DNA of 64,000 bases from NCBI GenBank assembly GCA_033816765.1, contig CM066287.1, forward strand, positions 868,001-932,000, read 5' to 3'. Under the pieces are notes generated by a model, which worked only from the letters and a program-made list of their open reading frames with translations, ran no database searches and was not told where the DNA came from. The position numbers and the translations under genes were made by a program. Positions 8,039 through 62,036 of the stretch are shown piece after piece; the stretch's first letter is position 1; each line of letters opens with the position of its first letter. The DNA comes from Nothopassalora personata. Its lineage: Eukaryota > Ascomycota > Dothideomycetes > Mycosphaerellales > Mycosphaerellaceae.

Positions 8039-8086
8039 GAAAAGTTTTATTTATACTCTAGTGCTCCTATACTAGTCTCATTTGCT

Positions 8087-9584: not shown

Positions 9585-9900
9585 TGTTACGGTCCGGTAC
9601 GATCGTGCACGTGGAAGAACTTCATTCGTTGGGAATAGGGACACGCGCTGCCAATGAGCGGGTGCTCTTGTGTGACTCATAGCAGAGCGCTCTTAGTGCT
9701 CTACCGAGAGAGCAGGACAGACCGCGCCAAGACATGGCACTATATAGACGACGCTCTTTTGCAAGTAGATAGGAGCTTCGTGCTCAACTCATTTCAAGTA
9801 TACACCATATACTGTTTGGGACCACTACCTTCTCAACGAGTCAGAGACATCACTGCAAAGATCCAAGCCCAGTTGGGATAACGTACAGCGGTTCCTAACA
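9585..9900 (+). repeat. N 5' LTR
   Basis: 316 bp, identical to 11642-11957 by eye. A 75-codon open frame inside it occurs in both LTRs and is not considered a gene. It contains GTGCTCAA (9780-9787), complementary to the site just after the LTR. Confidence 0.95.
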
Positions 9901-9932: not shown

Positions 9933-10925
9933 ATGTCTGGGAGAGACGCTACCCGGAGTCCGTCACGACAACAGCCACAGTCAACTGGCATCACGGAACG
10001 AATGAGCGAAATGTCGATTACAGGAAGCAGCAAGAACAACAACACTCCTATGGGTATGCTGAACCCATTGGACCACCACCGTGCACCTAAGGTATCTACG
10101 CCGGAGACGTTCGACGGGACCAAGGACAAACTGGAGGCTTTTCAACTGCAGGTTCAGTTGTACCTTCACTTCAACGCACACCAGTTTCAAGGCGAGGCCT
10201 CTAAGGTCTTGTACGCCGCATCCTTCCTACGAGGAAAAGCAGCTAGAGGATTCCGACCATACCTCAAGGACTGGCTACACAACCAGGGCAAGGGAGAAAC
10301 ACCGAAGACGGAAACTCGAAAAATTTTCCACGACTACGACGAGTTTGAGACGAAACTCGATGATCTATACGGGATACCAAATGAGGAGGTATACGCCGAC
10401 CGACATATCCGACAACTTCGACAGACTACTTCTGTAGCGCTGTACGCCTCAGAATTCCAAGGATATGCCGCCGACCTGGAATGGAACGACGCAGCTTTGC
10501 GATCGCAGTTCTACCTCGGGCTGAAAGACAACGTCAAAGCCGAACTATCCCGAAACGCCAGTGTCGTTACGCTAGGGGCGATGATCAAGGCAGCAAAGGA
10601 GATCGACGAAAGGCTCCAGGAGTTGAGGTACGACCGACACGTACAGCCTGGATACCAGAGACCCGCCGCGGGCGGAAGAGGGGGCTTCAAGGCCAGAAGT
10701 CAGGACCCTAATGGTTACGGAGACCCAATGGAATTGGACGTAACGGAACGTAGGACAGGAAGGGGGCTGAAGAGCAAAGGTTCCACCTGCTACGTATGTG
10801 GCGAGCAAGGCCACTTTGCAAGAAACTGCAAGAAGAAGAACATGGTTAGCCGCGAGTTCAACGCAATGATTCGCGAAGAGAATACATACCAGGAATGCGA
10901 GAACTTCTTCTCGAAATCTGCCTAG
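9933..10925 (+). CDS. gag: Gag protein of element N
   Basis: A 330-residue Gag begins at ATG 9933, 33 nt inside the LTR. Residues about 55-235 form a retrotransposon capsid-type region (TPETFDGTKDKLEAF, FLRGKAARGF, YASEFQGYA, FYLGLKDNVKAEL), followed by a Gly/Arg-rich linker and a CCHC zinc knuckle CYVCGEQGHFARNC at about 286-299, which binds nucleic acid in this family. It should form the virus-like particle core in which reverse transcription occurs. It is clearly related to Gag of element A but only distantly. It is intact, and no protease or RT follows it, so particle maturation and reverse transcription would need a helper element. Confidence 0.9.
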   Translation: MSGRDATRSPSRQQPQSTGITERMSEMSITGSSKNNNTPMGMLNPLDHHRAPKVSTPETFDGTKDKLEAFQLQVQLYLHFNAHQFQGEASKVLYAASFLRGKAARGFRPYLKDWLHNQGKGETPKTETRKIFHDYDEFETKLDDLYGIPNEEVYADRHIRQLRQTTSVALYASEFQGYAADLEWNDAALRSQFYLGLKDNVKAELSRNASVVTLGAMIKAAKEIDERLQELRYDRHVQPGYQRPAAGGRGGFKARSQDPNGYGDPMELDVTERRTGRGLKSKGSTCYVCGEQGHFARNCKKKNMVSREFNAMIREENTYQECENFFSKSA

Positions 10926-11037: not shown

Positions 11038-11538
11038 TTACGACGGATGGCCATCGGGCCACGAGAACGGAGAAGCGAGGCCGGCTCCAAGAAGATCGCT
11101 CTCGAGACCAGGGAAGTCCGACAGTTCGGGGTCGTTCGGATCGAACTCTGTGTTGGCGGCGAGGTGGGCTACTTCCTCGTCGACCCGGGAGTTATTCATG
11201 TTTCGAACCTCGCGATTGCGACGGATCCGCTGACGGAGAGCCTCGATCTTTCGGAAAATGTCTTCCGCGGAAATCTTGAGCCGCTCTATCTCCTGCTCGT
11301 CTGACTCGATCTTCTCTGTCAACTCTTCCACGACGCGGTCGAGTTTCTCGAGGGAGGAGGTGACACAAGGTTTCCCGAGGCGGGTGCAGTTGGCACAAGA
11401 CATGATGGAAAAATCGGCAATGTAAACGCAGGGGCGCTGATTCCGGCAACAGTGGTCGCAAGGTTTAGAAGGAACAAAGGGATCAGCAAAGATTTTAGCA
11501 AGACGACGTTTTTTGCGCTGGGCGGAGGACGAAGACAT
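11038..11538 (-). CDS. Antisense Zn2Cys6-like coiled-coil protein of element N
   Basis: This 166-residue protein is encoded opposite to gag, between gag and the 3' LTR. The ATG at 11538 is preferred because the longer frame has only a GTG start. Basic residues (RKKRR) precede six cysteines (codons between 11365 and 11460) spaced C-x2-C-x6-C-x10-C-x2-C-x6-C, which fits the GAL4-type Zn(II)2Cys6 consensus. A heptad-like Glu/Lys/Leu helix (about residues 55-115) follows, then an acidic tail ending in ASPF. The antisense protein of A (45203-45706) is a clear homologue, sharing CVYIADFS, CVTSS, EKLDRV and ASPF. Known GAL4-type proteins bind DNA as dimers; a regulatory or nucleic-acid role here is inference. 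The start lies 103 nt from the LTR. Confidence 0.75.
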   Translation of the reverse strand: MSSSSAQRKKRRLAKIFADPFVPSKPCDHCCRNQRPCVYIADFSIMSCANCTRLGKPCVTSSLEKLDRVVEELTEKIESDEQEIERLKISAEDIFRKIEALRQRIRRNREVRNMNNSRVDEEVAHLAANTEFDPNDPELSDFPGLESDLLGAGLASPFSWPDGHPS

Positions 11539-11641: not shown

Positions 11642-11957
11642 TGTTACGGTCCGGTACGATCGTGCACGTGGAAGAACTTCATTCGTTGGGAATAGGGACA
11701 CGCGCTGCCAATGAGCGGGTGCTCTTGTGTGACTCATAGCAGAGCGCTCTTAGTGCTCTACCGAGAGAGCAGGACAGACCGCGCCAAGACATGGCACTAT
11801 ATAGACGACGCTCTTTTGCAAGTAGATAGGAGCTTCGTGCTCAACTCATTTCAAGTATACACCATATACTGTTTGGGACCACTACCTTCTCAACGAGTCA
11901 GAGACATCACTGCAAAGATCCAAGCCCAGTTGGGATAACGTACAGCGGTTCCTAACA
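11642..11957 (+). repeat. N 3' LTR
   Basis: 316 bp, identical to 9585-9900, preceded by a purine tract at 11628-11641. Confidence 0.95.
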
Positions 11958-44730: not shown

Positions 44731-45108
44731 TGTTATGTCTCGTTCCAGGGCTAATCTCAAGGGGGGAGAGAAGTCAAGTCACGTGGCGGTATTCTTTGGA
44801 GAGGCTGAGGCGAGCTGAGAGCGAAGTGCAATAATTGGAGTAAGAGGTGTATTCCAATCAGTGAGATAGTAACATGAGTTGAACGCCTCGAAGCCATAAG
44901 GGTTTCTCAGCGTTCCTAAATACATAGGAGAATGCTTCTGGCTCGAAGCTCTTGGCAGGCGCGCTGTGTCGCGCTGGCTCGACATTGCGCAGGCTCGACA
45001 GCCGTCGCGCTCTTGCAGCGTCGCGCCATATCTTATTGGTCCTTGCTTCCTGTGAGCTGTAGGGCGTCCATTGGCTGGGCAGTGTCCTCGTCATATTGAT
45101 CCGTAACA
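44731..45108 (-). repeat. A 3' LTR
   Basis: 378 bp, identical to the 5' LTR by eye. Confidence 0.97.
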
Positions 45109-45202: not shown

Positions 45203-45706
45203 ATGTCTTCTCGCAAGTCCTCCGACCGTCATTCTCGCCATCGACGAATACTCGCCAATCCCCTCGACGCTCCAGTCCCTTGCGATTTCTGCTCTTCTCG
45301 TAGCCGTTGCTGCGTATACATCGCGGATTTTTCCCTTATGCCTTGCGCAGAGTGTGCTCGTCGCGGCAAGGAGTGCGTCACTTCTTCCTGGGAGAAGCTA
45401 GACCGGGTGGACGACGCTCTCGCGGCTAGGATCGAGGCCGATAAGAAAGAGATGGACGAGACAACGCGAGAAGCTCTTCGGTTGTTTTCTCGCATGTCGG
45501 AGCTCCAGGCGCGGATAGATCGCAACTCGAAGGTCCGGGATGCGAACAACAAACTGCTGAACGCGAAGATTGCGTGCGTCTCCCGGGAGGTATCCTCCTC
45601 GAATATCGATCCTCCTCCGGATCTAGAATCATTCGCCCAAGACTTGGAGGCTATTGGTGTGGCGTCTCCATTTGTCTTCTCCGGGAGTTCTGAAGTTCGA
45701 TTATAG
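45203..45706 (+). CDS. Antisense Zn2Cys6-like coiled-coil protein of element A
   Basis: 167 residues from ATG 45203; the frame is open from 45188 but with a GTG start. A basic N-terminus (SRKSSDRHSRHRR) precedes six cysteines (45281-45376) spaced C-x2-C-x6-C-x10-C-x2-C-x6-C, the Zn(II)2Cys6 spacing of fungal regulators, then SSWEKLDRV and a charged coiled-coil helix (about residues 60-115) and an acidic tail. It is clearly homologous to the antisense protein of N. Its stop is 6 bp from the pol stop on the other strand, and its start is 94 nt from the LTR. It was probably conserved by selection, since it is intact in two distant elements. A role as DNA-binding regulator is inference. Confidence 0.8.
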   Translation: MSSRKSSDRHSRHRRILANPLDAPVPCDFCSSRSRCCVYIADFSLMPCAECARRGKECVTSSWEKLDRVDDALAARIEADKKEMDETTREALRLFSRMSELQARIDRNSKVRDANNKLLNAKIACVSREVSSSNIDPPPDLESFAQDLEAIGVASPFVFSGSSEVRL

Positions 45707-45712
45707 CGTAGG

Positions 45713-48700
45713 TCACTCTCGTTCCCGAAATTGTTTGATCCTTTGCTGACAGTTCTGAAGGTTCTTTTCTGGTTCCCAGGTATTTTCTGAGTCGTCGTAT
45801 CCTTTCCATTTGACGAGGTAGTGCTGACCTCGCTTTTGCAGGATCTTTTCGACTTCGAATTCGTCTTCTTCTTCCGTCTGGAAATGGAATGTCTGTTGGC
45901 ATGGTGTTTTGGGGTCTGCTGGTTCTAGCTTGGAAATGTGGAATACTGGGTGGATTTTTGCGTCCTTTGGCAATTGCAGTCGGTAGTTGGTTGGTCCTCG
46001 TACTTCCTCAACGAGAAATGGTCCGACTTTCACATGGTCCAGTTTTTTGGTCTTCCTTCTTGTTCTCAATTTTGCGGTAAGGAGGTAGACCTTATCCCCC
46101 TTCTTAAGCTGAGGTGCCATTTGTCGTTTCGCTCGTGTTTTCGTAAGTATTGTCTGTTGTTGTTGAATTCTGGAATTGAGCTTGTCGTGTATTTTTCGTA
46201 GGCTCTCTGTAGCCGTAATTGCTCTTTCCGCTTGCGGGTGGCCTTGCCGTTCTCCGAACAGGTTTGGATGCTTGCCGTAGTTGGCGAAGAACGGTGTCTC
46301 TTTTGTAGTTTCTGATTCGTGATTGTTTAGTGCAAGTTGTGCCATAGGTAGGAGTGATACCCAGTTGTCTTGTGCGTAGTTGACGTAGTGTCGCAGGTAC
46401 TGTTCCAATGTCTGATTTGTTCTTTCCGTCTGACCGTCCGTCTGTGGATGGTACGCCGTGGACAGCTTGTGTCGTATACCAATTTCTGCTACAAGGGTCT
46501 TCCAGTAGTTTGATGTAAATAGCTTGTCTCTGTCTGTAATGAAGACTTTGGGGAATCCGTGGTACCGTACTAGTCTATCGAGAACGAGGTATCCGAGTTG
46601 TTCTGCTGTGTATGTCTCGCTAGCAGGTATGAAGTGTGCATATTTGGTTAGTCGATCGACCATAACAAGTATCATGTCGCACCTTGTCCCGTTTGCTTTG
46701 TCCGTAGAGATAGGGAGCTTTGTAATGAAGTCCATCGTAACTTCTTCCCATGGTTGTGTCGGTGGTGTCCTGAACTGTATTTCTCCGTACTTCTCGTGTC
46801 TTGCAGCCTTGTTTCGTTGGCAGTGTGTGCATTCTTTGATGTACTGAAGCACCTTTTGTCTCATCTGTGGGAAAGAGAAGCTGCGTCGTATGATCTCGAG
46901 AGTCTTCGTGGTTCCAGGATGTCCGTATACGGGGTTGTCGTGATGTTGCTGTATGCATTCTTGTTCTCGTTCCTTCGGTACTTGGTATTTTCCTTGTGCT
47001 AGTGGGAACTGTTCTTCTGTGTCCTGAAGAACGCGCACTATGCTGTTAAACTCCTTTGTGTTGGCGCTAAGACTTCCGTCGTGGTTAGTCTTCAATATTT
47101 GTTGCTGCACTGGTTCTTTTCCTTCCATGTAGTCGCTTCTTCGGCTCAGTGCGTCGGCCCTGCCGTTGTCCTTTCCGGGTGTATAGCGGATTTCGAACTT
47201 GTACTGACCAAGCAGTTCCGACCAGCGGGACTGTCTTCGTGTCAGCACTTTCGTCGTAGTGAAGTAAGTGAGATTCTTGTGATCAGAAAGAATCGTCAGC
47301 TTAGGTGCTCCTTCCGCGTATACCCTCCAGTGCTGCATTGCAGCGACAATAGCGAGAAGTTCTTTATCATGGATGTCGTAGTTTCGTTCCGCGGGTGTCA
47401 TTTTCCTTGAGTAATAGGCCACTGGGTGTCGTTTCCCATCATGCTCCTGCGTGAGGCATGCTCCTATAGCCATGTCCGATGCGTCAGTCTCAATCTGGAC
47501 TTCTTTTGTGCCGTCGAATAATCGTAGTGTAGGTGCTCGGGTGCATTGTTCCTTCAGTAGTTGGAACGCTTGTTGTTCTTTGCTGCCCCATTTCCATTTG
47601 GTATCCTTTCGTGTGAGCGCTGTCATAGCCGCAGCTGTCTTAGAGTAATCCTTGATGAACTTCCTGTTGTAGTTCGCGAGTCCTAGGAAGGATTGTACGT
47701 CCTTGACATTAGCTGGTGTCGGCCATTCTTGGATAGACTGTGTCTTTGCTGGGTCGATCTGGATTCCTGTTGTGCTTATAATAAATCCAAGGAATTTGAC
47801 TCGTTTCTTGTGGAATTCGCATTTCTCTGGTGCCGTCTTGAATCCTGCGCGGGTAAGGCGCTCGAAGACGTCCTGGACCCGTGTAATGTGTTCCTGTAGC
47901 GATCCTCTAGTATAGACGAGGATGTCGTCCATGTAGGCAATAACGCACACGTCGAGAAGGTCTCTCAGTGTCTCATTGACTAGATCTTGACAGGATGCAG
48001 GTGCGTTGGTTAACCCCATAGGCATAACCAAGAATTCGTAGAGTCCGTATCGTGTTCTAAATGCGGTTTTCCATTCCTCTCCTTCTGCCATGCGTATAGC
48101 GTAGAAGGCGTCTCGTAGATCGATCTTCGTGTACCAGTCTGATCCAGTAAGTCTGTCCTGTGCTTCTTCGATATTCGGTAGTGGGTATCGGTTCTTGATG
48201 GTGATCTCGTTCAACTTTCGGTAGTCTTGGACGAGTCGTAGTTTCCCGTTCTGCTTTGGAACAAACATACATGGAGTTCCCGCGCTTGAGGTGGACCGTC
48301 GTATCCATCCTTTGGCGAGTTTCTCCTTCAGCCATTCTCGTAGGGTTTCTAGCTCTTTCTCGGACATTTGATATAGGGGTCCCCATGGAGGCTCTTTCCC
48401 TGGCTGAATGTTTATCTTGTGGTCCCATGGTTGATGTTTAGGTAAGGCGTCTTTGCCCTTTTCCTCTTCAAAGAGCCTCTTCCACTTGAGGTACTCCTTG
48501 GGGATAGCTGGTTCCGATATGCCAGTATCCTTCGATGGTGCGTTACGTCCATCCGTTCCAGTGACTTCGTGATCCGGCGGCCCCACGCCAGTATCTGTCC
48601 CGGTCGAAGGTGGTTCTTCTGTCCTTCTGTTCGGCGCAAGCTCGAATGCGTTGAGCTGTTTCCTTGCCTCATCTACCATCGTCCGCTGTCGATGCGTAGG

Positions 48701-49120
48701 CTGAATGCCAATAACGCAATTGCATTCCCTAAATGTGAGTACTCCTCTCCTCCAGTCGATTGCTGGGTTGTGCTGTCTCAACCAAGGCATACCTAATACT
48801 ATGTCATGACTGGCCATATCAGTGACATCCAAGGTAATATTCTCGTGGTGCTGTTGGATAGCCAGTGGCAATGGTGTCGTCTCCCATTCCACGTTAGGTA
48901 ACGATGATCCGTCTACCGCGATCAACTCGTAACCCCATTTCTTCTTCAGGGTAGCTAACCCGTTTCTTCTTGCGAAAGACTTGGAGACAAAATTCCCCGC
49001 TGCTCCGGAGTCGATCATGACACTAGTTCTGTGTCCGTTGACGATTGCTTTGGTTTGGAAAACTGTTAGTGATGTCGATGCTCGAGCTTCTGTGTTGCAT
49101 AACTCCCTTTGGCCGCTCAT
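45713..49120 (-). CDS. pol: Pol polyprotein of element A (protease, RT, RNase H, integrase, chromodomain)
   Basis: 1135 residues. Protease active site DSGA at 37-40; RT from about 215 to 510 with TKIDLRDAFY and YMDD (396-399); RNase H acidic residues D546, E587 and D613; integrase HHCC (H727 or H726, H734, C764, C767) and a DD35E triad D797, D863, E899 with exact 35-residue spacing; GPF module near 1033-1035; C-terminal chromodomain about 1087-1131 (EKILQKRGQHYLVKWKGYDD). All catalytic residues are present, so it should be active. Known chromoviral chromodomains steer integration to marked chromatin. The start ATG overlaps the Gag stop as ATGA, in the -1 frame. Confidence 0.97.
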   Translation of the reverse strand: MSGQRELCNTEARASTSLTVFQTKAIVNGHRTSVMIDSGAAGNFVSKSFARRNGLATLKKKWGYELIAVDGSSLPNVEWETTPLPLAIQQHHENITLDVTDMASHDIVLGMPWLRQHNPAIDWRRGVLTFRECNCVIGIQPTHRQRTMVDEARKQLNAFELAPNRRTEEPPSTGTDTGVGPPDHEVTGTDGRNAPSKDTGISEPAIPKEYLKWKRLFEEEKGKDALPKHQPWDHKINIQPGKEPPWGPLYQMSEKELETLREWLKEKLAKGWIRRSTSSAGTPCMFVPKQNGKLRLVQDYRKLNEITIKNRYPLPNIEEAQDRLTGSDWYTKIDLRDAFYAIRMAEGEEWKTAFRTRYGLYEFLVMPMGLTNAPASCQDLVNETLRDLLDVCVIAYMDDILVYTRGSLQEHITRVQDVFERLTRAGFKTAPEKCEFHKKRVKFLGFIISTTGIQIDPAKTQSIQEWPTPANVKDVQSFLGLANYNRKFIKDYSKTAAAMTALTRKDTKWKWGSKEQQAFQLLKEQCTRAPTLRLFDGTKEVQIETDASDMAIGACLTQEHDGKRHPVAYYSRKMTPAERNYDIHDKELLAIVAAMQHWRVYAEGAPKLTILSDHKNLTYFTTTKVLTRRQSRWSELLGQYKFEIRYTPGKDNGRADALSRRSDYMEGKEPVQQQILKTNHDGSLSANTKEFNSIVRVLQDTEEQFPLAQGKYQVPKEREQECIQQHHDNPVYGHPGTTKTLEIIRRSFSFPQMRQKVLQYIKECTHCQRNKAARHEKYGEIQFRTPPTQPWEEVTMDFITKLPISTDKANGTRCDMILVMVDRLTKYAHFIPASETYTAEQLGYLVLDRLVRYHGFPKVFITDRDKLFTSNYWKTLVAEIGIRHKLSTAYHPQTDGQTERTNQTLEQYLRHYVNYAQDNWVSLLPMAQLALNNHESETTKETPFFANYGKHPNLFGERQGHPQAERAITATESLRKIHDKLNSRIQQQQTILTKTRAKRQMAPQLKKGDKVYLLTAKLRTRRKTKKLDHVKVGPFLVEEVRGPTNYRLQLPKDAKIHPVFHISKLEPADPKTPCQQTFHFQTEEEDEFEVEKILQKRGQHYLVKWKGYDDSENTWEPEKNLQNCQQRIKQFRERE

Positions 49121-51213
49121 TCCTGGGGAGCTGATCCTTTTCCCGAATGGTATGTGGTTCGCTGTGCTTCGTGCCTAGATGCTTCGGCTAGAACCTGTAG
49201 CCCGTTGCTCTGTGTCCACACCTGTAGTTTGTTGCGTTCCTGGATCTTCTGCGATTCTGAGTAGAGAGCACGTACGTGCTGTACTGCTTGGCGTAATTCG
49301 TTGGATACAAATATCCCTGACGGTGTAAGGTACCCGGTACCTATCATCTTGCTTCCTATTGGTGGTCGCTCGGTCATTGCTCGCATAGTGTCGAGTGTCT
49401 TGTCAAATTCGACTGGATGCAAGTATCTCTTGCCCGAGACCTTGGGTAGGAATTCTTCGTGCTTGCGCGTCAGATAGACAATAATGTCGTAGAACTTCTT
49501 GGGTGCGTCTATCGTGAACGTCAAGACTTCATTGTCGTCGTCAGTTTCGCTCTCTTCTCCTTCGGATGAGTCCTCGCTCGACTCTTCCGGGGTATGATCT
49601 TCTTCGATGGTATCCAGGGTTTCTTCTTGTTGTACGGGGGACCATCGTCCATCCCATGTTGGTTCCTGGTTTTCTTTGTCTTCATCATCGAAGCAAGACT
49701 CATCAATGTCCACTTCTCGGAGCCTGGCATCTTGCCTGTGCTGAGCTCCCAGGGTTCCCCTTGGCTGTTGTGGCCAATACCCTGCTCCTTCCTTCGCGGA
49801 GTAGTGGATCGAGCACGAGTCTTGGTAACAGAAGCTCCAATGAAGGGTTCCGTGACCATTTCGAGGGCCCGTAGCAGCCTCGTTTCCCCGCGCTATCATG
49901 CCGAATTCTCGTTTCTCCTGTCGTTCGATCTCGCTGGTTATTTCCCACCATCGCTTATGGAGGTCGTCGTGTTGTTGTATAGCTGTGAGATCTATCCGGT
50001 CCTCGTGAAGATACATCCAGGTGTCAATCTGGTCGAATGCATTATCGAGGTCGTTCCTTTCCTGGAGAAGTTGTTCGAGTTCGCATGTTTCTGTGAACTG
50101 TTGTGGCTGGTCCTCTTGACCATGGTATCCTCCTCGTCCCATCGAGGGGTCCAAGGAAGGTCCTTCGTTAACTCTTCCTTCCACTCCCTGAGTATAGTCG
50201 GTGTCTCCCAGAGTCCCAACGCTGCTCCCAGGTTTACTAGTTCGTGGTTGCATCATGTTGAACTGCTCGCGGCGCACCATATTTTTACCGCGGCAATCCC
50301 GCGCCATGTGGCCTTCCTTGCCACACGCGTAGCATGTCGGTTTTCCTTTTCCCTTGAAGGGCTTTCCTCGGCCCTTGCCTCTGTCGATCCTTTCTCCTCG
50401 TTGGGTAACGTCCAGCTCCATTGGTTGTGGTCCGTAGTAGGGCTGGTTGTGTCGCGGAAAGTTCCCCTTCGCAACGTAGCCCGTAGAAGGCTTGCGATCC
50501 GGAACGTATCCTGCCATGCCTCCCACTTTGGAGTCGTATTTCTTTTCCTGGTAACGTTCCCACAACTGATCGTCGATCTCAATCGATGCTCGCATCAGTC
50601 GCTCGAGGGTGTCGACCTGTCCTCCGTGTCTCATGAGCTCGTCCTTGACGGAGTCCTTGAGTCCACGTCTGAACATTGTCATCAACGCCGTCTGGTCCCA
50701 TCCGGTAATCTGTCCGTATTCTTCAAACTTGGCCGCGTACTCCGAAGTAGACGTCTTCTGCTTCAGGTGTTGGATTATTCGTATGGCCTGTTGAACCTCG
50801 TTGGAAGTCCCAAAGATAGACTTCATCTTGTCCTTAAAGAGGGTGTAGTTCCTGAACATTCCGGTGGGGTCTCGTTGTCCCATACCGTCAAGGTATTCCT
50901 TGAGGTACGGCTTGATCCAGTTCTGCGCGCTTCCACGAAGGAACGTGATGGCGAAAATAGTTCTCTTGTCGGAGTCGACTGGGTTGAACATGAGGTACAT
51001 ATCCATTTGATTGACCCAATCATCGAACTTGGCCCTGTCTCCATAGAAGAGGTCCGGCTTGGCAGCCTTAACGTCCTTCTTCCTAGGAACGGGTTCGTCG
51101 TCGTCATCAGACTCATCGTCCTTCATGGTGGTTTGTTGCGGTGGCGCACGGCGGATGCTTCCTGCTTCGCTGGGGGCGGGTGTTCCCCTACCAGCTGCCT
51201 GAGTAGCACTCAT
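49117..51213 (-). CDS. gag: Gag protein of element A with long acidic C-terminal extension
   Basis: 698 residues from ATG 51213, 18 nt inside the 5' LTR (the frame extends to 51228 without an ATG). Capsid-like region about 50-225 (KPDLFYGDRAKFDDW, FLRGSAQNWIKPYLKEYL, YAAKFEEYGQITGW, FRRGLKDSVKDEL); CCHC knuckle CYACGKEGHMARDC at about 294-307. About 390 residues follow the knuckle, unusually long, with an acidic central part (EEDHTPEESSEDSSEGEESE). Gag should form the particle that packages element RNA. The stop overlaps the Pol start. Confidence 0.95.
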   Translation of the reverse strand: MSATQAAGRGTPAPSEAGSIRRAPPQQTTMKDDESDDDDEPVPRKKDVKAAKPDLFYGDRAKFDDWVNQMDMYLMFNPVDSDKRTIFAITFLRGSAQNWIKPYLKEYLDGMGQRDPTGMFRNYTLFKDKMKSIFGTSNEVQQAIRIIQHLKQKTSTSEYAAKFEEYGQITGWDQTALMTMFRRGLKDSVKDELMRHGGQVDTLERLMRASIEIDDQLWERYQEKKYDSKVGGMAGYVPDRKPSTGYVAKGNFPRHNQPYYGPQPMELDVTQRGERIDRGKGRGKPFKGKGKPTCYACGKEGHMARDCRGKNMVRREQFNMMQPRTSKPGSSVGTLGDTDYTQGVEGRVNEGPSLDPSMGRGGYHGQEDQPQQFTETCELEQLLQERNDLDNAFDQIDTWMYLHEDRIDLTAIQQHDDLHKRWWEITSEIERQEKREFGMIARGNEAATGPRNGHGTLHWSFCYQDSCSIHYSAKEGAGYWPQQPRGTLGAQHRQDARLREVDIDESCFDDEDKENQEPTWDGRWSPVQQEETLDTIEEDHTPEESSEDSSEGEESETDDDNEVLTFTIDAPKKFYDIIVYLTRKHEEFLPKVSGKRYLHPVEFDKTLDTMRAMTERPPIGSKMIGTGYLTPSGIFVSNELRQAVQHVRALYSESQKIQERNKLQVWTQSNGLQVLAEASRHEAQRTTYHSGKGSAPQE

Positions 51214-51219
51214 CCTGAG

Positions 51220-51230
51220 GGCGTTCAAAG
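51220..51230 (-). promoter_or_regulatory. Probable self-primer binding site of A
   Basis: On the minus strand CTTTGAACGCC directly follows the 5' LTR. TTGAACGCC is the exact complement of GGCGTTCAA within the LTR (51379-51387). No tRNA 3'-end match is evident. Confidence 0.65.
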
Positions 51231-51608
51231 TGTTATGTCTCGTTCCAGGGCTAATCTCAAGGGGGGAGAGAAGTCAAGTCACGTGGCGGTATTCTTTGGA
51301 GAGGCTGAGGCGAGCTGAGAGCGAAGTGCAATAATTGGAGTAAGAGGTGTATTCCAATCAGTGAGATAGTAACATGAGTTGAACGCCTCGAAGCCATAAG
51401 GGTTTCTCAGCGTTCCTAAATACATAGGAGAATGCTTCTGGCTCGAAGCTCTTGGCAGGCGCGCTGTGTCGCGCTGGCTCGACATTGCGCAGGCTCGACA
51501 GCCGTCGCGCTCTTGCAGCGTCGCGCCATATCTTATTGGTCCTTGCTTCCTGTGAGCTGTAGGGCGTCCATTGGCTGGGCAGTGTCCTCGTCATATTGAT
51601 CCGTAACA
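51231..51608 (-). repeat. A 5' LTR
   Basis: 378 bp, identical to the 3' LTR; includes the self-primer complement at 51379-51387. Confidence 0.97.
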
Positions 51609-52883: not shown

Positions 52884-53270
52884 TGTTACGGTTCGGTCTA
52901 AACGGCAGCCCCGACTAGACACACGAAACACTAATCACTTAGAAACACGTGATACTGATCATCTAGACGCACGTGACACTGATCACTTCACGGACTGATT
53001 AGTGTGATTAGTATGCTTAGTAGGACTAATTAAGGTGATTATACTAAGCTATAGGCTCTACGCCGCGAATCTCCTTTATATTTAGGAACGCTAGAAACCC
53101 TTATAGTTCTAATGCGTTCAACTCATGTTACTATCTCACTAATTGGAATACAACTCTTATTCCTATCATTTATCTTCGCTTAGCTTACTTTAGCCTCTCT
53201 AAAGAATAATACCGCTACGTAACTTGACTTATCTCTCTTTTAAGACTAGCCCTAGAACGAGATAATAACA
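52884..53270 (+). repeat. C 5' LTR
   Basis: 387 bp, TGTTACGG to AATAACA. It contains GCGTTCAA (53114-53121). The bases after it, CTTTAAACGC, are one TG-to-TA change away from the perfect complement seen in A. Confidence 0.9.
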
Positions 53271-53287
53271 CTTTAAACGCCCTTAGG

Positions 53288-54728
53288 ATGAGCGCTACTT
53301 AAGCAGCTAGTAGGGGAACACCCGCCCCTAGCGAAGCAGGAAGCATCCGCCGTGCGCTACTACAACAGACCACTACGAAGGACGATGAGTCTAATGACGA
53401 TAACGAGCCTACTCTAAGGAGGAACGACGTTAAGGCTGCTAAGCCAGACCTTTTCTATAGAGACAGGGCTAAGTTCGACGACTAGATTAATTAGATAGAT
53501 ATGTATCTTATGTTTAACCTAGTCGATGCCGATAAAAGAACTATCTTCGCTATTACGTACCTTCGCGGAAGTGCGTAGAACTAGATCAAACCTTACCTTA
53601 AGGAATACCTTAAAGGTATAGGACGATTAGACCCCACTAGAATGTTTAGGAGCTACACTCTCTTTAAAGATAAGATGAAATTAATCTTTAGAACCTCGAA
53701 CGAAGTCTAATAGGCTATACGAATCATTCAACACCTAAAGCAGAAGACGTCTACTTTAGAGTATGCAGCCAAATTCGAAGAATACGGACAAATTACTAGA
53801 TGGGACTAGACGGCGTTAATGACTATGTTCCGACGTAGACTTAAAGACTCCGTTAAGGACGAGTTAATAAGACACGGGGGACGGATTACTAACCTCGAAG
53901 AGCTAATAAAGGCGTCGATTAATATCGATGACTAGCTCTAGGAACGACACTAGGAGAAGAGATACGACTCTAAAGTAGGAGGAATAGTAGGATACGCTCC
54001 GGACCGTAGACCCTTAGGAGGATACGTTACGAAGGGAGAATTCTTACGATAAAGCCAGCCCTACTATAGACCACAGCCAATAGAACTGGACGTTACCTAA
54101 CGAGGACGGAGGATCGATAAGAGTAGGGGCTACGGAAAGCCCTTTAAAGGAAAAGGAAAACTTATATGTTATGCCTGTAGTAAGGAAGGCTACATAGCGC
54201 GAGATTGCCGCGGTAAAAATATAGTGCGCCGCGAGCAATTTAATATAATGCAACCCCGAACTAGTAAATCTAAGAGTAGCGTTAGATCTCGAGGAGATAC
54301 CGACTATACTCGGAGAGTGGAGGAGAGAGCTAACAATAGAAGCACGACGCCTCTCCTAGACCCCTTAGAAGGACGAGGAGGATACTATAGGCAGCAAATA
54401 GTAGTCATTCTATTTAATGCGAAGAACTAACTACGACAGTTTAACATAATAATACGAAGAGTCGACTACGAGACCGAATCCGAGTCTCGAAATGGTTATA
54501 GAAGCCTTCATTAGCGATTCTGTTACTAAGACTCGTGTTAAATCCACTACGCCGCGAAATTAGGCGCAGGGTATTAGCCTTAGTAACTACGAGGAACCCT
54601 AAGAGCGACGTATAGGTAAAACGCTACGCTTAGAGAAGTGGACATCGATGAATCCTACTTTAACGAAGATAGAAGCGATAAAGAAAATTAGGACCTAGGA
54701 TAGAACGGATCATAGTTACTAGAACTAC
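53288..54728 (+). pseudogene. C gag relic
   Basis: ATG 53288 is 18 nt inside the LTR, as in A. The translation follows A Gag (PDLFYRDRAKFDD, YAAKFEEYGQIT, CCHC remnant near 54,170-54,210) through RIP stops, and is cut by B2 at a position corresponding to about residue 540 of A Gag. Confidence 0.85.
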
Positions 54729-54925
54729 TATAAGGGGCAGCCTAGTAGCTAACCCCTACATGTAGCCTTACATATAACATACGGTCGCGACCGGCTGCTA
54801 AGCCGCACGTGACACGCATAAGTACACCTTACGACGCGCGATGCGTCTTAAACAAAAGGCAAGAATTAGTTCATCTACGACTAGTAGGTCGTAGGCGTGC
54901 TATACATTACGACATCCCCTTAATA
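54729..54925 (+). repeat. B2 5' LTR
   Basis: About 197 bp, reverse complement of the B1 LTRs with RIP-type differences. Confidence 0.85.
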
Positions 54926-54960
54926 GTTCTAATTCTTCTCTTCGTTGTAATCTATACACA

Positions 54961-55279
54961 TGTTAGGAACCGCTGTACGTTATCCCAACTGGGCTTGGAT
55001 CTTTGCAGTGATGTCTCTAACTCGTTGAGAAGGTAGTGGTCCGAAACAGTATATGGTGTATACTTAAAATGAGTTGAGCACGAGGCTCCTATCTACTTGC
55101 AAAAGAGCGTCGTCTATGTAGTGCCGTGTCTTGGCGTGATCTTTCCTGCTCTCTCTGCTCTCTCTGCTCTCTCGAGAGAGCACCCGAGAGCACTGAGAGC
55201 ACTCTGCATATCGGGTGCATCCGCTGGTCTGCTGGCATCGATTGGTTGGCTACGGGCTTCCCCAGACCGATCCGTAACA
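54961..55279 (-). repeat. Solo LTR of an N-related family
   Basis: 319 bp with TGTTAGG...CCGTAACA ends and target duplication ACACA/ACACG (54956-54960, 55280-55284); the uninterrupted site is visible in B1 near 15,265. In reverse complement its last about 150 bp match the N LTR closely, while the first half is different and has a CTCTCTG-type microsatellite (55,146-55,200). It is little mutated compared with its RIP-damaged surroundings. It is the product of LTR-LTR recombination. Confidence 0.85.
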
Positions 55280-55284
55280 ACACG

Positions 55285-56440
55285 CTATAGAGTCCGAACG
55301 CGACGACAGTAGCGCTACGCCTACGGCTCCCCTAAGCCCTAGGGCCTAGTAACAAGCGAGGCGTGCAGCCTTAGTCGCAAGGAGGGATGCCCTTCGGGCA
55401 GAGGTTAAGGAGAAGGAGATATAGAGGGAGATTGAACAGTTGGAGATCTTGCGGGACGTAAGCGTGCCGCCGGCGGACCCTTAGGGCGAATCCGGCGGAG
55501 AACTATCCCCTACTCCCCCTCCCCCTCCTCCATCTATAGTAACTAACGATAATATCGTAGCTCGAGGCGCGGTCGCATCGCATGCGACACGTTTACGTCT
55601 TAAAGAACCTACGCCTTTTAGAGGGGACTCGATTAAGAAAGCACGGGTATTCCTAAGGGAGCTCTCTCTTGTCTTTACCCTCTTAGGCGGCACGTATGCG
55701 ACGAACGAGTTAAAGGTCCTATATAGGGTTATGTACCTAAGCGGAGAGGCAAGTGAGCGATAGTACGCTAACTATAGCGTCCTTAACCTTAAAGGGTATA
55801 CATACTAGGACTTTGAGGAGTTCTGTCGAGACGCATGCGGTAATCCTATAAACCGCGTGCTTAACGTAATGTTAGAGTATAAGGCGGTGAAATAGAAGGA
55901 TAACTAGACAGTGCGTCAGTTTACGACTAAGCTAGATGTTATAGAGGATCAGTTAGGGGACTATACGGAGGCGTAACGCGTGCGACATATGCTCGCTAAG
56001 CTTACGCCTAGCCTACGGTCCGTAATCGTTAAGTTTTATAACATCCTAACAACTAGAGAGGAACTAGTAATCCTAGCTTCGCGCATTAAAAGTACGGAGC
56101 GTAGTAGCGGAGGGTACGACCGCGGGCAGCATGGTCGCCGTAGGCGAGAGACTAAGGGCGACTAAGGGCGAAGCGATCGTAGCTCGAAGTAGTAGAAGCA
56201 TAGTTAGGCGTCGCGCGACCCGGGTACGAGTTACTAGCGGGACGCCGGCGGATCGTCTATAACCTTCGATAGGACTAAAGCGGAGTGCTATAGATGCTAT
56301 AAGAAGGGTCATATTAAGACGGATTGCCCAAATAGGCACCTATAGAAGGACCGTAGCGCGTAAGCGGTTCGTAGGGTAGACGCTACGAAGGCTCTAACTA
56401 AGAAGGGTAGCGACTAGGGAAAAGGTAGAGGACTATAAGT
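55285..56440 (+). pseudogene. B2 gag relic
   Basis: A capsid-like region (FRGDSIKKARVFLREL, YLSGEASER) and a CCHC knuckle (CYRCYKKGHIKTDC, near 56,290) with a moderate number of TAG stops. It is better preserved than the same region in B1. Confidence 0.75.
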
Positions 56441-57804
56441 GGGTCGCTAGGTCGCTCCTAAGTCCGAGTTTTCCTAAAGTCGACCCCTTAAGGCGAGTAG
56501 ATGCGTGTCTAGCGCGTTACTTACGAGGCGCAGTCGAGACTCGTAAGGGCTTTCGCGAGGCCACGTTTCTCCTAGATGACTATACGGATCTTAGCCTAGT
56601 ATCGTATAAGTATATACTCCAACATTAAATGCAACCTATTAATAGGGTAAGGCTACCGAAGTTAGAGTCGCATGCGCATGACCTAGGGTATTGCTACGGC
56701 GCCTTTACGGTTCGGCTACGACTCGCTAATGACGCGGGAGTAGAGCGCGTAAGTGACGCTATCTACTACGCGGTGCCTATAGGTAGGCTATTAGTGATTT
56801 TAGGTAGACCCTAGCGGCATCGTAATCGGATAGTAAAGGCCGATAAGGATAACTAGTGGTACTACGGTGTAGAGACGCCTACGGTTTAGTAGCGTGACGT
56901 ACGCGAGTTCCTTAAGGATCTCGAGAGCTTAAAGTAGGTCTATGCGATAAGTGTTCGGGCTATTACTGCAGCAGTACCTAAAGGAGAGGGCCCCTCGTGG
57001 CCTAAAGAATTTGTAGACTTCCGAGATGTATACGTACCTAATAAGTAGGCGAAGCGTAAGATGCCCGACGGGGTTGAGTATGCGATTAATCTCGTTAAAG
57101 GAAAGAAACCCCCTTTCAAGCCGCTGTACTACTAGTCCTTAACTGAGTTGGAGGCCTTAAAGGAGTACCTTACGTAAGCAATGGAGAAGGGGTAGATTAG
57201 GCGGTCCGCAAGCGAGGCGGGTGCGCCTATCCTATTCGTACTAAAGAAGAATGGCACTCTTAGGCTCTATGTTAATTATAGAGGCCTAAATGAGATTATA
57301 GCAAAGAACCGATACCCCCTACCCCTAATTAGCGAGACGCTAGATAGGCTATTAGGTTCTAGGTTCTTTACTACAATCGATTTTAAGGACGCCTACTATC
57401 GTATCCCTATTAAGCGAGGCGATGAGTGGAAGACTACGTTTCGTACGCGATACGGATACTACGAGTACCTAGTAATGCCGTTCGGGTTAACTAACGCACC
57501 GGTAACCTTTTAAGGGTATATTAATAAGGCGCTAATCGGCTTAGTTAATGACATTTGCGTGGTCTACCTAGATAATATCCTCATCTATAGCGAGACGCGT
57601 GAGGCATACGTACAAGCCGTACGCGCGGTACTAGAGAGGCTACGAAAGTTTGCCCTGTTCGCAAACCCTAAGAAGTATCACTTCTTCTAGGAGAGTATAG
57701 AGTTCCTTAGGTTTATCGTAAGCGCCGTAGGCGTGTCGATAGATAGGAGTAGGGTAGCCGCTATCGAGGAATGGCCTATACCTACGACCTTTTATAAGGT
57801 CTAG
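56441..57804 (+). pseudogene. B2 protease/RT relic
   Basis: Reads ETATFLLDDYTDLSL-like protease remnants, then RT blocks [27 protein letters not shown] and VYLDNILIYSE (the YxDD second Asp is Asn). It ends within RT at the junction with C. Confidence 0.8.
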
Positions 57805-60800
57805 TATCGTTACCTAGCGTAGAATGGGAGACGATACTATTGCTACTAGCTATCTAACAGCACTACGAGAATATTACCTTAGATGTTACTAATATAGCTA
57901 GTTATAACATAGTATTAGGTATGCCTTAGTTAAGAAAGCATAATCTAGTAATCGACTAGAGAAGAGGAGTACTCACATTTAGGGAATGCGATTGCGTTGT
58001 CGACATTTAGCCTACGTAGTAGTAGCGTTTACTAGTAGATGAGGTAAGGAAACAGCTAAACGAGATATAGCTTACGCCGACTAGAAGGATAAAAGAACCA
58101 CCTTCGACCGGGATAGACACTAGCGTAGGGCCGCCGGGTTACGAAGTTACTAGAAGTAATAGAAGTAACGCACTATCGAAGAATACTAACATCTTAGAGT
58201 TAAGTATTCCTAAGGAGTATCGTAAGTAGTCGCGACTCTTTAAAGAGGAGAGAGGCAAAACCGCCTTACCTAAGCACCGCCTATAGGATCACAAGATCAA
58301 CATTTAGCTAGGGAAAGAGCCTCTATAGGGACCCCTATATTAAATGTCTAAGAAAGAGCTATAGACCCTACGAGAATAGCTAAAGGAGAAGCTAGCTAAA
58401 GGATAGATAAGAAGATCCACCTTAAGTATAGGAACTCTATGCATGTTTGTTCTAAAAGCAAACGGGAAGTTACGACTCGTACAAGACTATAGGAAGTTAA
58501 ACGAGATTACGATTAAGAACCGATACCCGCTACCTAACATCGAAGAAGCATAGGACAGATTAACCGGATCGGACTAGTACACGAAGATTGACCTACGAGA
58601 TGCCTTCTATGCTATACGAATAGTAGAAGGAGAAGAATAGAAAACCGCTTTTAGAATAAGATACGGACTCTACGAATTCTTAGTTATGCTAATAGGATTA
58701 ACTAACGCACCCGCATCCTACTAGGACCTTGTAAACGAAACACTTAGAGACCTACTCGACGTATACGTTATCGCCTATATAGACGACATACTAGTCTACA
58801 TAAAAGGATCCCTACAGGAACACATAAAACAAGTCTAGAACGTCTTCGAACGACTTGCGCAATTAGGATTTAAGACGGCACCCGAGAAATGCGAATTCTA
58901 TAAGAAAGAAGTTAAATTCTTAGGCTTTATTATTAGCACTATAGGGATAACGATCGACCCTACGAAGATACAGTCAATTAGAGAGTAGCTAGAACTAAAA
59001 ACAGTTAAGGACGTACAATCATTCCTTAGACTAGCGAACTACAACCGGAAATTCATTAAGGACTACGCGAAAATAGCAGCACTAATAACGATGCTTACGA
59101 GAAAGGACGTTACTTAGAAATGGGGAAAGGAATAGACTAAAGCATTTAAGAAACTTAAGGAACAATGCGCTTTAGCCCCTACGCTTCGATTATTCGATAG
59201 TAGCAAGGAAGTCCACATCAAGACCAATACGTCTAATATAGCAATAGGCGCGTGTCTAACGTAGACACACGATAGGTAGAGACACCTAGTAGCCTATTAC
59301 TCCCGGAAAATGACTATAGCGGAACAGAACTACGACATCTATAATAAAGAGCTTCTAGCCATTGTTGCTGCTATGCAACATTAGAGAGTATATATCGAGG
59401 GCCTACCAAAGTTAACGATTCTTTCTAACTATAAGAATCTTACGTACTTCACGACGACGAAAGAACTTACCCGAAGGCAAGCTCGCTAGTCGGAGCTGCT
59501 AGGACAGTATAAGTTCGAAATTAAATATACTCTAGGACGAGAGAATAGCCGCGCCGACGCGCTAAGCCGAAGAAGCGACTACATAGAAGAAAAAGAACTA
59601 GTATAACATAAGATATTAAAGACGAACCCCGACGGAAGTCTTAGTGCTAATACAAGAGAATTTAATAACATCGTACGAATATTAGGCGATAGGGACGAAC
59701 AATTCCCTATATCGTAAGGAAAATACTAAGTACCTAAGGATCGAGAAGAAGAATGTATACGACAACATCACGACGGACTAACTTATAGACACCCTAGAAC
59801 TTCAAAAACAATAGACCTAATATAGCGTAGCTTCTTATTCCTATAAATGAGACTTAAGGTATCACGCTACATTAAACAATGCGTACACTGCTAATGAAAC
59901 AAGGCTGCGAGACATGTAAAATACGGTTACCTATAGTTTAGGACACTACCGACGAAACCATAGGACGAAGTTACAATAGACTTTATTACGAAACTCCTAC
60001 CGTTAAGAGATTAAGTTACGAAACAACTATACGATATAATACTAGTTATGGTTAATAGACTTACAAAATACGCATACTTTATTCCTGCATTAGAAACGTA
60101 CAATGTAGAGCAGCTCGGATACCTCGTACTAGATAGACTTATCCGATACTACGGATTCCCTTAAGCATTTATAACGGATAGAGATAAGCTATTTATATTA
60201 AACTACTAGAAGACGCTTATAGGAACGATCGGAATTAAACACAAGCTGTTAATAGCATATTATCCGGAAACAGACGGACAAATCGAAAGGATGAATTAAA
60301 CGCTAGAACAATACCTACGACACTACATTAATTATGCATAAGACAACTAGGTCTTATTACTGCCAATGGCGCAGATTGCTCTAAATAACCACAAATTAGA
60401 GACAACTTTAACGACACTATTTTATGCGAACTTTAGTAAAGATCCTAACCTATTTAGAATACCTAGATCCTACCTACAAGCCGAAAGAGCAATTGTAACG
60501 ACGGATACTCTTAAGGAAGTGCATAAAGAAACACGTAAGGCGATCGAAGATGTATAACACAAACTGTCTTAATAACGGCAGGACACGAGAAAAATAGCAC
60601 CTCTGCTAAAAGAGGGGGATAAGGTCTATCTCCTTACAAAAAACTTGAGAACAAGAAGATAGACTAAGAAACTGGATTACGTTAAGGTCGGACCATTTTT
60701 TATCGACAAAGTCATAGGACCAGTTAACTACCGCCTACGACTACCACTAGACGCAAGAATCCACCTAGTCTTCTATATCTCTAAGTTAGAACCCGCAGAC

Positions 60801-61019
60801 GCCGAAACACCCTACTAGGAGAGCTTCTATTTCGAACCGGAAGTAGAAAACGAATTCGAAGTCGAAAGAATCCTAGATAAGAAAGGTTAGCGATACCTTA
60901 TTAAATAGAAAGGATACGACGAATTAGAAAATACCTAGGAACTAGAAAAGAACCTACAAAACTGTTAATAAAAGATCCGAGAATATTATAAGAAAAACAA
61001 AGACCTACAAGTTAACTAG
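57805..61019 (+). pseudogene. C pol relic
   Basis: Begins at the equivalent of A Pol residue about 74 (LPSVEWE) and follows A to the end: RT with YIDDI near 58,775, RNase H, integrase and the chromodomain remnant, stop at 61017-61019. Numerous TAG stops. Confidence 0.88.
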
Positions 61020-61558
61020 TAGGGAGTAGTTCGGGTACCTCCTAGAACTCGTTACCGAGACCCTTAATAGCACCCTATGTACCTAGTAACAAGTTGAGAG
61101 CTAGACCCTTACAAGGGATATCCGAAGGAAGTAAAGAAGCCTCTTCTATCTCCTACTCCTCGATCTCCCTTTCCTTAACGGAAATCGCCTCCTCGGCACG
61201 ACGATCCACTAGATCCATCTACTAACGTAAGCGCGCGAGCAATCTTCAGATCCTCGAGAGCCTTCTTATGAACCCGCATCGCCTCCTCCTAAGCGGACCG
61301 AGACTCCTAGATTTTCTAACGAAGACGAGCCTTCTCCTCTACTAACCTCTTAAACTCCGACTAAGTTACTCTTACATCGCACCTTTAGCCGCGACGAAGA
61401 CACTTACTACACTTCCTGGAACGAATGTGTACCTTGCACACGCGACTATGCTTTTTACACGTTAAGCATTTCTTAACTATGACTTCTCCCGCGGATTTAA
61501 CGAACTCGTAGAGACGGCGGCGACGGATAGTGCTAGAAGGGCGTTAGTAGATAGGCAT
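61012..61558 (-). pseudogene. C antisense Zn2Cys6-like relic
   Basis: ATG 61558 lies 92 nt from the 3' LTR. The frame reads to KKCLTCKKHSRVCKVH, then KCSKCLRRG and C: six cysteines (61379-61468) spaced C-x2-C-x6-C-x8-C-x2-C-x6-C, then a charged helix with RIP stops. A later one-base frame change precedes the end. The stop (61012-61014) overlaps the pol stop on the other strand by a few bases. Apart from the cysteine spacing and helix it shares little with the A and N proteins. Confidence 0.7.
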
Positions 61559-61649
61559 CGCAAAGGGAAGAAGCTATACGCGAATACATAGAGGATACCG
61601 TTCGTTATAAGTAAGCTTAAGGAACTAAGCTAGGCTAGAAGGGGGATAG

Positions 61650-62036
61650 TGTTACGGTTCGGTCTAAACGGCAGCCCCGACTAGACATACGAAACACTAA
61701 TCACTTAGAAACACGTAATACTAATCATCTAGACGCACGTGATACTAATCACTTCACGGACTAATTAGTGTGATTAGTATGCTTAGTAGGACTAATTAAG
61801 GTGATTATACTAAGCTATAGGCTCTACGCCGCGAATCTCCTTTATATTTAGGAACGCTAGAAACCCTTATGGTTCTAATGCGTTCAACTTATGTTACTAT
61901 CTCACTAATTGGAATACAACTCTTATTCCTATTATTTATCTTCGCTTAGCTTGCTTTAGCCTCTCTAAAGAATAATACCGCTACGTAACTTGACTTATCT
62001 CTCTTTTGAGACTAGCCCTAGAACGAGACAATAACA
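61650..62036 (+). repeat. C 3' LTR
   Basis: 387 bp copy of 52884-53270, preceded by purine tract GAAGGGGGATAG. Confidence 0.9.

What the first reader, a model, noticed from the sequence alone, without database searches (positions are those of the whole stretch)
45203..45706. Retrotransposon-encoded antisense Zn2Cys6-like gene, conserved in A, N and C
Three Gypsy-type elements (A 45203-45706, N 11038-11538, C 61012-61558) carry a gene on the opposite strand between pol or gag and the 3' LTR. All three have six Cys with the GAL4-type spacing (C-x2-C-x6-C-x8 or x10-C-x2-C-x6-C) and a following charged helix. Starts lie 94, 103 and 92 nt from the LTR. In A and N the frame is intact with near-equal length (167, 166 aa) despite distant Gag proteins, so selection is likely. 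Zn2Cys6 proteins are normally host transcription factors; I know of no description of LTR elements carrying one in antisense, but could not search. The element may encode its own regulator.
Basis: partly seen in the sequence, partly recalled or inferred. Interest (0 to 1): 0.92.

Follow-up and report, generated by a model that had tools for sequence, protein, structure and literature searches.

The report
Swappable antisense regulator genes in retrotransposons
Virus-like jumping elements of a fungus carry, backwards at one end, a small gene that looks like a fungal gene-switch protein, and many different versions of this gene, mostly each with its own stretch of control DNA, sit on almost the same element backbone, which hints that the elements carry and exchange their own switches.

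Summary
In detail: A and N have intact 167/166-aa ORFs antisense to pol/gag, 94 and 103 nt from the 3' LTR, with six Cys in GAL4-type spacing; C is a RIP-decayed remnant. An antisense gene here is not new (Boty brtn, 2011; BRTN's sequence could not be compared). New, as far as my searches go: the gene is an exchangeable cassette. One nearly constant gag (98.7% nt identity) carries at least 13 antisense genes (mean 33% aa identity), mostly each with its own U3; four related pol groups (82-100% aa) carry four more. All 17 keep six Cys and an open antisense frame (0 stops; the other five frames 48-116). dN/dS is 0.16-0.32 in 8 of 11 pairs, dS saturated. Models show a C6 module plus long helix; the short Foldseek lists are led, weakly, by Zn2Cys6 proteins. 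Most likely each is the element's own GAL4-like regulator, probably an activator, exchanged with its neighbouring U3 by template switching. Zinc, DNA binding and antisense transcription are inferred. Against: U3 beyond nt 45 does not track protein similarity, two of 53 elements carry another U3 than their cassette mates, and motif arrays are significant in 4 of 13 U3s.

The parts
45203..45706 (+). element A: antisense Zn2Cys6-like gene, 167 aa (Cys 27-58, predicted helix 61-132, then a tail)
45713..49120 (-). element A: pol ORF (protease, RT, RNase H, integrase, chromodomain), 1135 aa, tail-to-tail with the antisense gene
49117..51213 (-). element A: gag ORF, 698 aa; its middle is 38% identical to the N gag over 290 positions
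44731..45108 (-). element A 3' LTR, 378 nt, identical to the 5' LTR; its U3 end faces the antisense gene
51231..51608 (-). element A 5' LTR, 378 nt
9585..9900 (+). element N 5' LTR
9933..10925 (+). element N gag, 330 aa, with CCHC knuckle; the nearly constant part of the non-autonomous group
11038..11538 (-). element N: antisense Zn2Cys6-like gene, 166 aa (cassette N)
11642..11957 (+). element N 3' LTR; nt 1-151 are the variable U3, the rest (from the TATATA box) is largely shared by the other cassettes
61012..61558 (-). element C: RIP-decayed remnant of an antisense gene, best matches to cassettes J and O, stops in all three frames of its strand
61650..62036 (+). element C 3' LTR (end approximate, from the match to A's LTR)
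54961..55279 (-). LTR of the J cassette type (96% identical); no element of its own seen in the window

Best explanation
The antisense ORF is an accessory gene of a group of fungal Ty3/Gypsy elements that encodes a minimal GAL4-like regulator: N-terminal helix (basic in most cassettes), divergent Zn2Cys6 module, long helix, tail that is acidic/aromatic in most. Its start codon lies 43-103 nt from the edge of the 3' LTR in most cassettes, so its transcript should start in or beside the U3 of the 3' LTR. I propose that the protein binds its own U3 as a dimer and activates transcription in both directions: sense transcription from the 5' LTR, antisense from the 3' LTR. In the genomic RNA (R-U5-gag-pol-antisense gene-U3-R) the gene and U3 are neighbours at the 3' end, so one template switch after gag or pol exchanges both. 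That gives a shared body carrying many different regulator+U3 modules. SHOWN by sequence: the intact selected antisense frame, invariant Cys, one gag with 13 cassettes, four cassettes on closely related pol, gag polymorphisms shared across cassettes, U3 that mostly goes with the cassette. PREDICTED: the helices. INFERRED: zinc, DNA binding, dimerisation, activation (over repression), antisense transcription, template switching as the mechanism.
For: Antisense frame open in 17 of 17 cassettes, other frames not; dN/dS 0.157-0.32 in 8 of 11 pairs, 3 not computable. Six Cys in 17 of 17 at a mean protein identity of 33% among the 13 gag-type ones. AF2 models pLDDT 88.1 (A) and 86.7 (J): two short helices in the C6 region, then one helix of 72-74 residues. 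Foldseek against 350,542 PDB chains: top 4 of 7 (A) and top 3 of 4 (J) hits are Pho7, HAP1 and a CBF3 subunit (that all are Zn2Cys6 proteins is recalled), E 0.8-7. Mosaic: in 78 pairs of 13 cassettes gag 98.7%, R-U5 91.6%, U3 62.7%, post-gag region 65.1% nt identity (shuffled U3 55.4%, shuffled post-gag 58.5%). 19 of 27 biallelic gag sites are polymorphic in two or more cassettes and 124 of 351 site pairs show four combinations. Pol groups A, T, R, U: pol 100, 89, 82, 82% to A, antisense proteins T, R, U 24-29% to A; the tree joins R with G, U with I, A with D/E/N/B (support 0.90-0.996). Linkage: the antisense 5'UTR (r 0.68, p 0.0001) and, without M, U3 nt 1-45 (r 0.41, p 0.004) track protein similarity. 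Of 161 same-cassette pairs 142 have U3 identity of 0.85 or more and 14 others differ by a duplication (L022) or repeat number (H); of 1217 different-cassette pairs 1 shares a U3. Repeated 7-mers in U3: J GAGAGCA x6 (3+3 inverted), G x4, H x8, E x17, each at the floor p 0.0033.
Confidence: 0.53

Rival explanations
1. Repressor / immunity module: the protein represses its own U3, like a phage repressor. New cassette+U3 pairs then escape the repression set up by resident families, which would drive the diversification on a constant gag. (The rivals listed here do not all exclude one another.)
For: The pattern (constant structural gene, highly divergent regulator next to its control region, swaps by recombination) is that of lambdoid phage immunity regions (recalled). 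13 or more types coexist in one genome.
Against: Tails are acidic/aromatic in most cassettes, which in fungal Zn2Cys6 proteins points to activation (recalled); many copies of one type coexist (at least 32 J copies, 5 of them with a stop), which a strong autorepressor should limit. L009 and L024 have U3s unlike their cassette mates'.
Confidence: 0.17
2. DNA-binding accessory for integration or nuclear entry: the protein binds DNA or chromatin and guides the preintegration complex; it does not regulate transcription.
For: Zn2Cys6 plus coiled coil would suit DNA tethering; TGTTACGG at the LTR tip of all 18 U3s compared, with CGG-N2-CGG in 6 of 18 (p 0.0002 against composition shuffles); the review PMC7264820 proposes nuclear roles for plant antisense ORFs (passages read).
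Against: An integration factor need not be read from an antisense transcript; pol already has a chromodomain; the common ancestry of LTR tips is not controlled in the CGG test; U3 diversity is not explained.
Confidence: 0.1
3. Counter-silencing factor: the protein opposes host silencing of the element's copies, like VANC proteins of VANDAL elements (recalled); variety is an arms race with the host.
For: The genome shows RIP-like decay (C element TA/AT 1.77), yet many intact copies persist (121 scored gag copies, 1 with a stop; but only the best 121 of 1045 candidates were scored, so decayed copies are left out).
Against: Nothing in sequence or fold points to silencing machinery; compatible with, and hard to tell from, an activator.
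Confidence: 0.1
4. The antisense RNA, not the protein, is what matters (dsRNA or interference); the ORF is incidental.
For: Antisense transcripts with regulatory roles are discussed for plant elements (PMC7264820, passages read).
Against: Amino-acid level constraint: open frame in 17 of 17, third-position excess, invariant Cys.
Confidence: 0.04
5. The constant gag and variable 3' end reflect capture of one gag by old non-autonomous families, with U3 hitch-hiking; the antisense gene is an ordinary accessory gene of another role and its variety is plain age.
For: Physical adjacency of gene and U3; no co-evolution signal beyond U3 nt 45; cassettes of non-autonomous and pol-bearing elements interleave in the tree; U3 exchanges in L009 and L024.
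Against: Does not say why the families keep the gene intact, non-autonomous ones included (52 of 55 elements with an ORF of at least 150 aa).
Confidence: 0.16

Closest known systems
Boty-like Gypsy elements of Botrytis cinerea with antisense gene brtn (Zhao et al. 2011, Virology 417:248; not held, seen as cited in PMC8365987, PMC7264820, PMC4227169; BRTN homologue in Monilinia in PMC5987419; passages only)
   Same: Fungal Ty3/Gypsy element with gag-pol, chromodomain and one antisense gene between pol and 3' LTR
   Different: The passages I read do not say that BRTN is a Zn2Cys6 protein and I could not compare sequences; cassette exchange, several versions on one gag and U3 linkage are not mentioned in those passages
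[quoted passage not shown] review PMC7264820, passages read)
   Same: Position and orientation; present in most copies; nuclear or regulatory role proposed
   Different: The review reports no clear similarity to known proteins, though it names an SMC domain in PvRetro13 ORF2 and a transposase 28 domain in Retand ORF4; here the protein has a GAL4-like plan
HTLV-1 HBZ (recalled; an antisense promoter in the HTLV 3' LTR is mentioned in PMC7264820)
   Same: Antisense gene at the 3' end, expressed from the 3' LTR, encoding a small transcription regulator with dimerising helix
   Different: bZIP protein of an animal retrovirus; no Zn cluster; not known to me as a cassette swapped between elements; resemblance of plan only
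Fungal Zn2Cys6 transcription factors (GAL4, HAP1, LEU3, Pho7; Pfam PF00172)
   Same: Six Cys in C-x2-C-x6-C-x8..11-C-x2-C-x6..7-C order in 11 of 17 cassettes, short helices, following long helix, mostly acidic tail
   Different: Below the Pfam cut-off in A, N and J and without a match in nine of ten others scanned singly; 6 of 17 cassettes have x13 in the first loop; the 17 proteins have only 159-241 aa; of 112 genomic Zn_clus places one lies within 5 kb of the 202 gag, pol and antisense places compared, about 2.7 kb beyond the 3' LTR of that element (L050)
TR-GAG non-autonomous LTR elements of plants (search listing and starts of abstracts)
   Same: LTRs plus gag without pol (definition recalled)
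   Different: Here a fungal element that also keeps an antisense gene, in at least 13 versions
Immunity regions of lambdoid phages (recalled)
   Same: Mosaic: constant structural genes, divergent regulator beside its operator
   Different: Retroelement; repression not shown; analogy only

Membership tests
Fungal Zn2Cys6 (Zn_clus, PF00172) | six Cys in CxxC-x6-C / CxxC-x6..9-C arrangement | tested here: met
   A and N meet it; 17 of 17 cassettes keep six aligned Cys, 11 of 17 with x6 and 6 of 17 (H, I, K, L, M, U) with x13 in the first loop
Fungal Zn2Cys6 (Zn_clus, PF00172) | score above Pfam's curated cut-off (21 bits) | tested here: not met
   A 11.4, N 10.1, J 10.4; D reaches 21.0; the other nine proteins have no Zn_clus match up to E 1; 8 of 17 members of alignment A3 match at E up to 1, best 0.00036. 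So filed as Zn2Cys6-like, not as a member
Fungal Zn2Cys6 (Zn_clus, PF00172) | Zn2Cys6 fold | tested here: inconclusive
Fungal Zn2Cys6 (Zn_clus, PF00172) | binds two zinc ions and CGG-type DNA sites | not testable with these tools
   needs protein and DNA-binding assays
Ty3/Gypsy chromovirus | PR-RT-RH-IN-chromodomain order in pol | tested here: met
   element A pol, (the integrase core itself scores 30.9 against a cut-off of 32.6)
Boty-like element with antisense brtn | single antisense gene between pol and 3' LTR | tested here: met
   A in the window; T, R, U in 1-kb fetched stretches beside pol
Boty-like element with antisense brtn | antisense protein homologous to BRTN | not tested
TR-GAG-like non-autonomous element | two LTRs, gag, no pol | tested here: met
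   55 elements with LTR, gag and LTR extracted; the ten aligned are about 2.4 kb long
HBZ-type antisense regulator | bZIP domain | tested here: not met
   no bZIP model among the families listed (first 25 of 63 shown); a C6 cluster instead. Works-like only

The most novel reading that the evidence does not exclude
The fungal elements have a modular regulatory identity: [antisense Zn2Cys6-like factor + its own U3] is an exchangeable specificity module moved by recombination among shared gag(-pol) bodies, so that one genome hosts more than a dozen element types that differ mainly in who switches them on: a eukaryotic retroelement counterpart of phage immunity types.
Probability: 0.32. Interest if true: 0.9.

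Novelty: new variant of a known kind. Interest (0 to 1): 0.74.

Why it matters
Antisense accessory genes of LTR elements have been known for years without a function (PMC7264820, passages). Here the protein plan points to a testable one (a private transcription factor acting on the LTR), and the cassettes give a natural set of 17 proteins with their U3s for testing specificity. If true, LTR retrotransposons in filamentous ascomycetes carry their own switches, can change them by recombination, and may be a source of small Zn-cluster proteins annotated as 'hypothetical' in Cladosporium, Hortaea, Pseudogymnoascus, Elasticomyces and the lichen fungus Xanthoria (none of those hits was seen in its genomic context).

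Tried and rejected
Host gene captured recently: 112 Zn_clus places in the genome were compared with 202 gag, antisense and pol places; one lies within 5 kb of them, and none was seen on these ORFs. Origin unknown. Sense-strand ORF with an antisense shadow: rejected, the three sense frames carry 48-63 stops in 17 cassettes, with one open in one family. U3-protein co-evolution over the whole U3: tested and not found. CGG-N2-CGG at the LTR tip: significant against composition shuffles, but the tips look related by descent, so given little weight. Context of homologues in other fungi: no suitable collection; viral contigs gave nothing for pol. The pol donor of the gag-only elements was not identified; gags of T, R and U were not read. 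PDB sequence searches gave only weak hits. Literature: ten searches showed no description of a Zn2Cys6 antisense gene or of cassette exchange; I read listings and passages, subscription papers are mostly not held, and Zhao 2011 could not be read. The host was not identified; that it is a filamentous ascomycete is inferred from RIP-like decay and from the named homologues.

Selection of rows: of 121 scored gag copies (of 1045 candidates), 55 had an A-type match; of the other 66 I read 40 (L021-L060), in the tool's order. With loci and the window this gave 55 elements: 53 in 13 cassettes (grouped by more than 30% shared 12-mers, so N with its variant and H with the L024 variant are lumped) and 2 without an ORF of 100 aa in the stretch searched: L028 (deletion) and L037, whose shortened I-type ORF runs into gag. 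L031 is a J copy whose frame is broken. So 13 is a lower bound and copy numbers are not a census. Cassettes Q (15 copies) and S were not read. Three antisense copies of unequal length were dropped from the within-cassette count. The gag test used 51 of 53 elements (the two D gags are shorter). The B representative is L009, the U3 recombinant. For cassette O, alignments A2 and A3 used a slice 33 nt short. In one search the two LTRs of the E and I representatives are only 93 and 92% alike.

For this second U3 exchange I lowered the best explanation from 0.55 to 0.53 and the novel case from 0.35 to 0.32, and raised the hitch-hiking rival from 0.15 to 0.16.

Full report
CHECK. ORF A (45203-45706 +) and ORF N (11038-11538 -) are intact and lie as described. 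A is tail-to-tail with a complete pol (protease, RT, RNase H, integrase, chromodomain), 6 nt apart. N sits between a 330-aa gag with a CCHC knuckle and the 3' LTR; N has no pol. LTRs start TGTTACGG, and the distances of 94, 103 and 92 nt are right. C is decayed: stops in all frames of that strand, TA/AT 1.77 against 0.77 in A and 0.58 in the window's 20-44 kb region.

IN THE GENOME. The window lies in a 54.5-Mb, 40-contig assembly. Protein A finds 109 places (150 of 195 candidates scored): 9 identical copies, several intact families at 34-44% identity and many copies with TAG/TAA stops. The N gag finds 121 scored copies (of 1045 candidates) at 98-100% aa identity, 1 of them with a stop. 55 of the 121 have an A-type antisense ORF behind them. 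I read 40 of the 66 others; 37 carry an intact antisense ORF of another cassette, L037 a shortened one, L031 a broken one and L028 none. From 55 elements I defined 13 cassettes; 52 of 55 have an antisense ORF of at least 150 aa.

THE MOSAIC. Between the 13 cassette representatives (78 pairs) gag is 98.7% identical on average (95.1-99.9), R-U5 91.6%, U3 62.7%, the post-gag region 65.1%, and the antisense protein 33% (23-64). Shuffled U3 pairs give 55.4% and shuffled post-gag pairs 58.5% with the same aligner; 33 of 78 U3 pairs and 72 of 78 post-gag pairs exceed the best shuffled pair, so both are diverged but not unrelated. Gag polymorphisms cut across cassettes: 19 of 27 biallelic sites vary within two or more cassettes, 124 of 351 site pairs show all four combinations, and gag differs by 0.62% within and 0.83% between cassettes, a small but real difference (permutation p 0.0005). 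Within ten cassettes with two or more copies the antisense gene has 11 variable codons, gag 81. In the LTR alignment the variable U3 gives way, in most cassettes at about a CGCCAAGAC box just upstream of TATATA, to a shared core and R-U5.

POL-BEARING FAMILIES. Pol A finds, among 41 scored of 3595 candidates, 9 copies at 100%, 15 at 89% and 17 at 82%, all without stops. One-kb stretches beside one copy each (L061, L062, L063) show antisense ORFs of three further cassettes, T, R and U, only 24-29% identical to A. In the protein tree R joins G (0.996), U joins I (0.987) and A falls among D, E, N and B (0.90-0.99). Cassettes thus cross between pol-bearing and gag-only elements.

PROTEIN AND U3. 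The antisense 5'UTR tracks protein similarity (Mantel r 0.68, p 0.0001); U3 nt 1-45 does if M is left out (r 0.41, p 0.004; with M r 0.19, p 0.075); the rest of U3 does not. Of 161 same-cassette pairs, 19 have U3 identity under 0.85: 10 through a 54-nt duplication in L022, 4 through repeat number in H, 4 through a different U3 in L024, and 1 (L009-L020) through a different U3 in L009. Of 1217 different-cassette pairs one (L009-L054) shares a U3. Four of 13 U3s hold significant 7-mer arrays (E, H, G, J), four are marginal (B, D, F, K), five have none. So gene and U3 mostly travel together, as their adjacency in the RNA genome predicts, but specific pairing is not proven.

KNOWN OR NEW. An antisense gene at this place is known: brtn of Boty (cited in PMC8365987, PMC7264820, PMC4227169; passages read), a BRTN homologue in Monilinia (PMC5987419, passage read), and plant elements (PMC7264820). 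I could not read the brtn paper or its sequence. The Zn2Cys6-like plan and the cassette exchange did not appear in ten searches. Homologues number 3 (E up to 10), 85 (E up to 0.01) and 104 (E up to 0.001) in three protein searches (candidates capped in the last two, overlapping hits). Those listed with an organism are 'hypothetical proteins' of Cryoendolithus, Cladosporium, Xanthoria, Elasticomyces, Hortaea, Taxawa and Pseudogymnoascus; a few metagenome ones bear unrelated names such as galactokinase.

VERDICT. A real, selected gene. The kind (antisense accessory gene of a Gypsy element) is known; the protein plan and the modular exchange, mostly with U3, make it a new variant. The best reading is an element-borne transcription regulator, more likely activator than repressor; all biochemical steps are inferred.

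Noticed in passing
L015 (G000:C12:1354500-1364400); also L047/L048: Head-to-tail arrays of gag-only elements sharing LTRs: six N units at 2056-nt period on C12, pairs of G, F and J units elsewhere.
   Followed up: no
L009 versus L020 and L054; L024 versus L021, L035, L041, L060: Natural U3 exchanges: cassette B in L009 has the U3 of cassette M (L054), and L024 (H variant) has a U3 unlike the other H copies.
   Followed up: partly
window 54961-55279: A J-type LTR (96%) lying inside the span of the decayed element C, without its own element seen in the window.
   Followed up: no
window 1-9584 and 52884-62036: Strong RIP-like dinucleotide bias (TA/AT 2.35 and 1.77) next to unaffected copies A and N (0.77, 0.89).
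   Followed up: partly
window 49594-51318 (+): A second long ORF (574 aa) antisense to the gag of element A, running into the 5' LTR; not tested for conservation, may be chance.
   Followed up: no
L061 731-872; L022 LTR start: Duplications of the first 71 and 54 nt of the LTR, giving two TGTTACGG tips in one LTR.
   Followed up: no
window 11642-11654 and 17 other U3s: A second CGG two bases after the invariant one at the LTR tip in 6 of 18 U3s (N, B, E, J, C, U); CGG-N10-CCG in T. May be binding sites or shared ancestry.
   Followed up: partly
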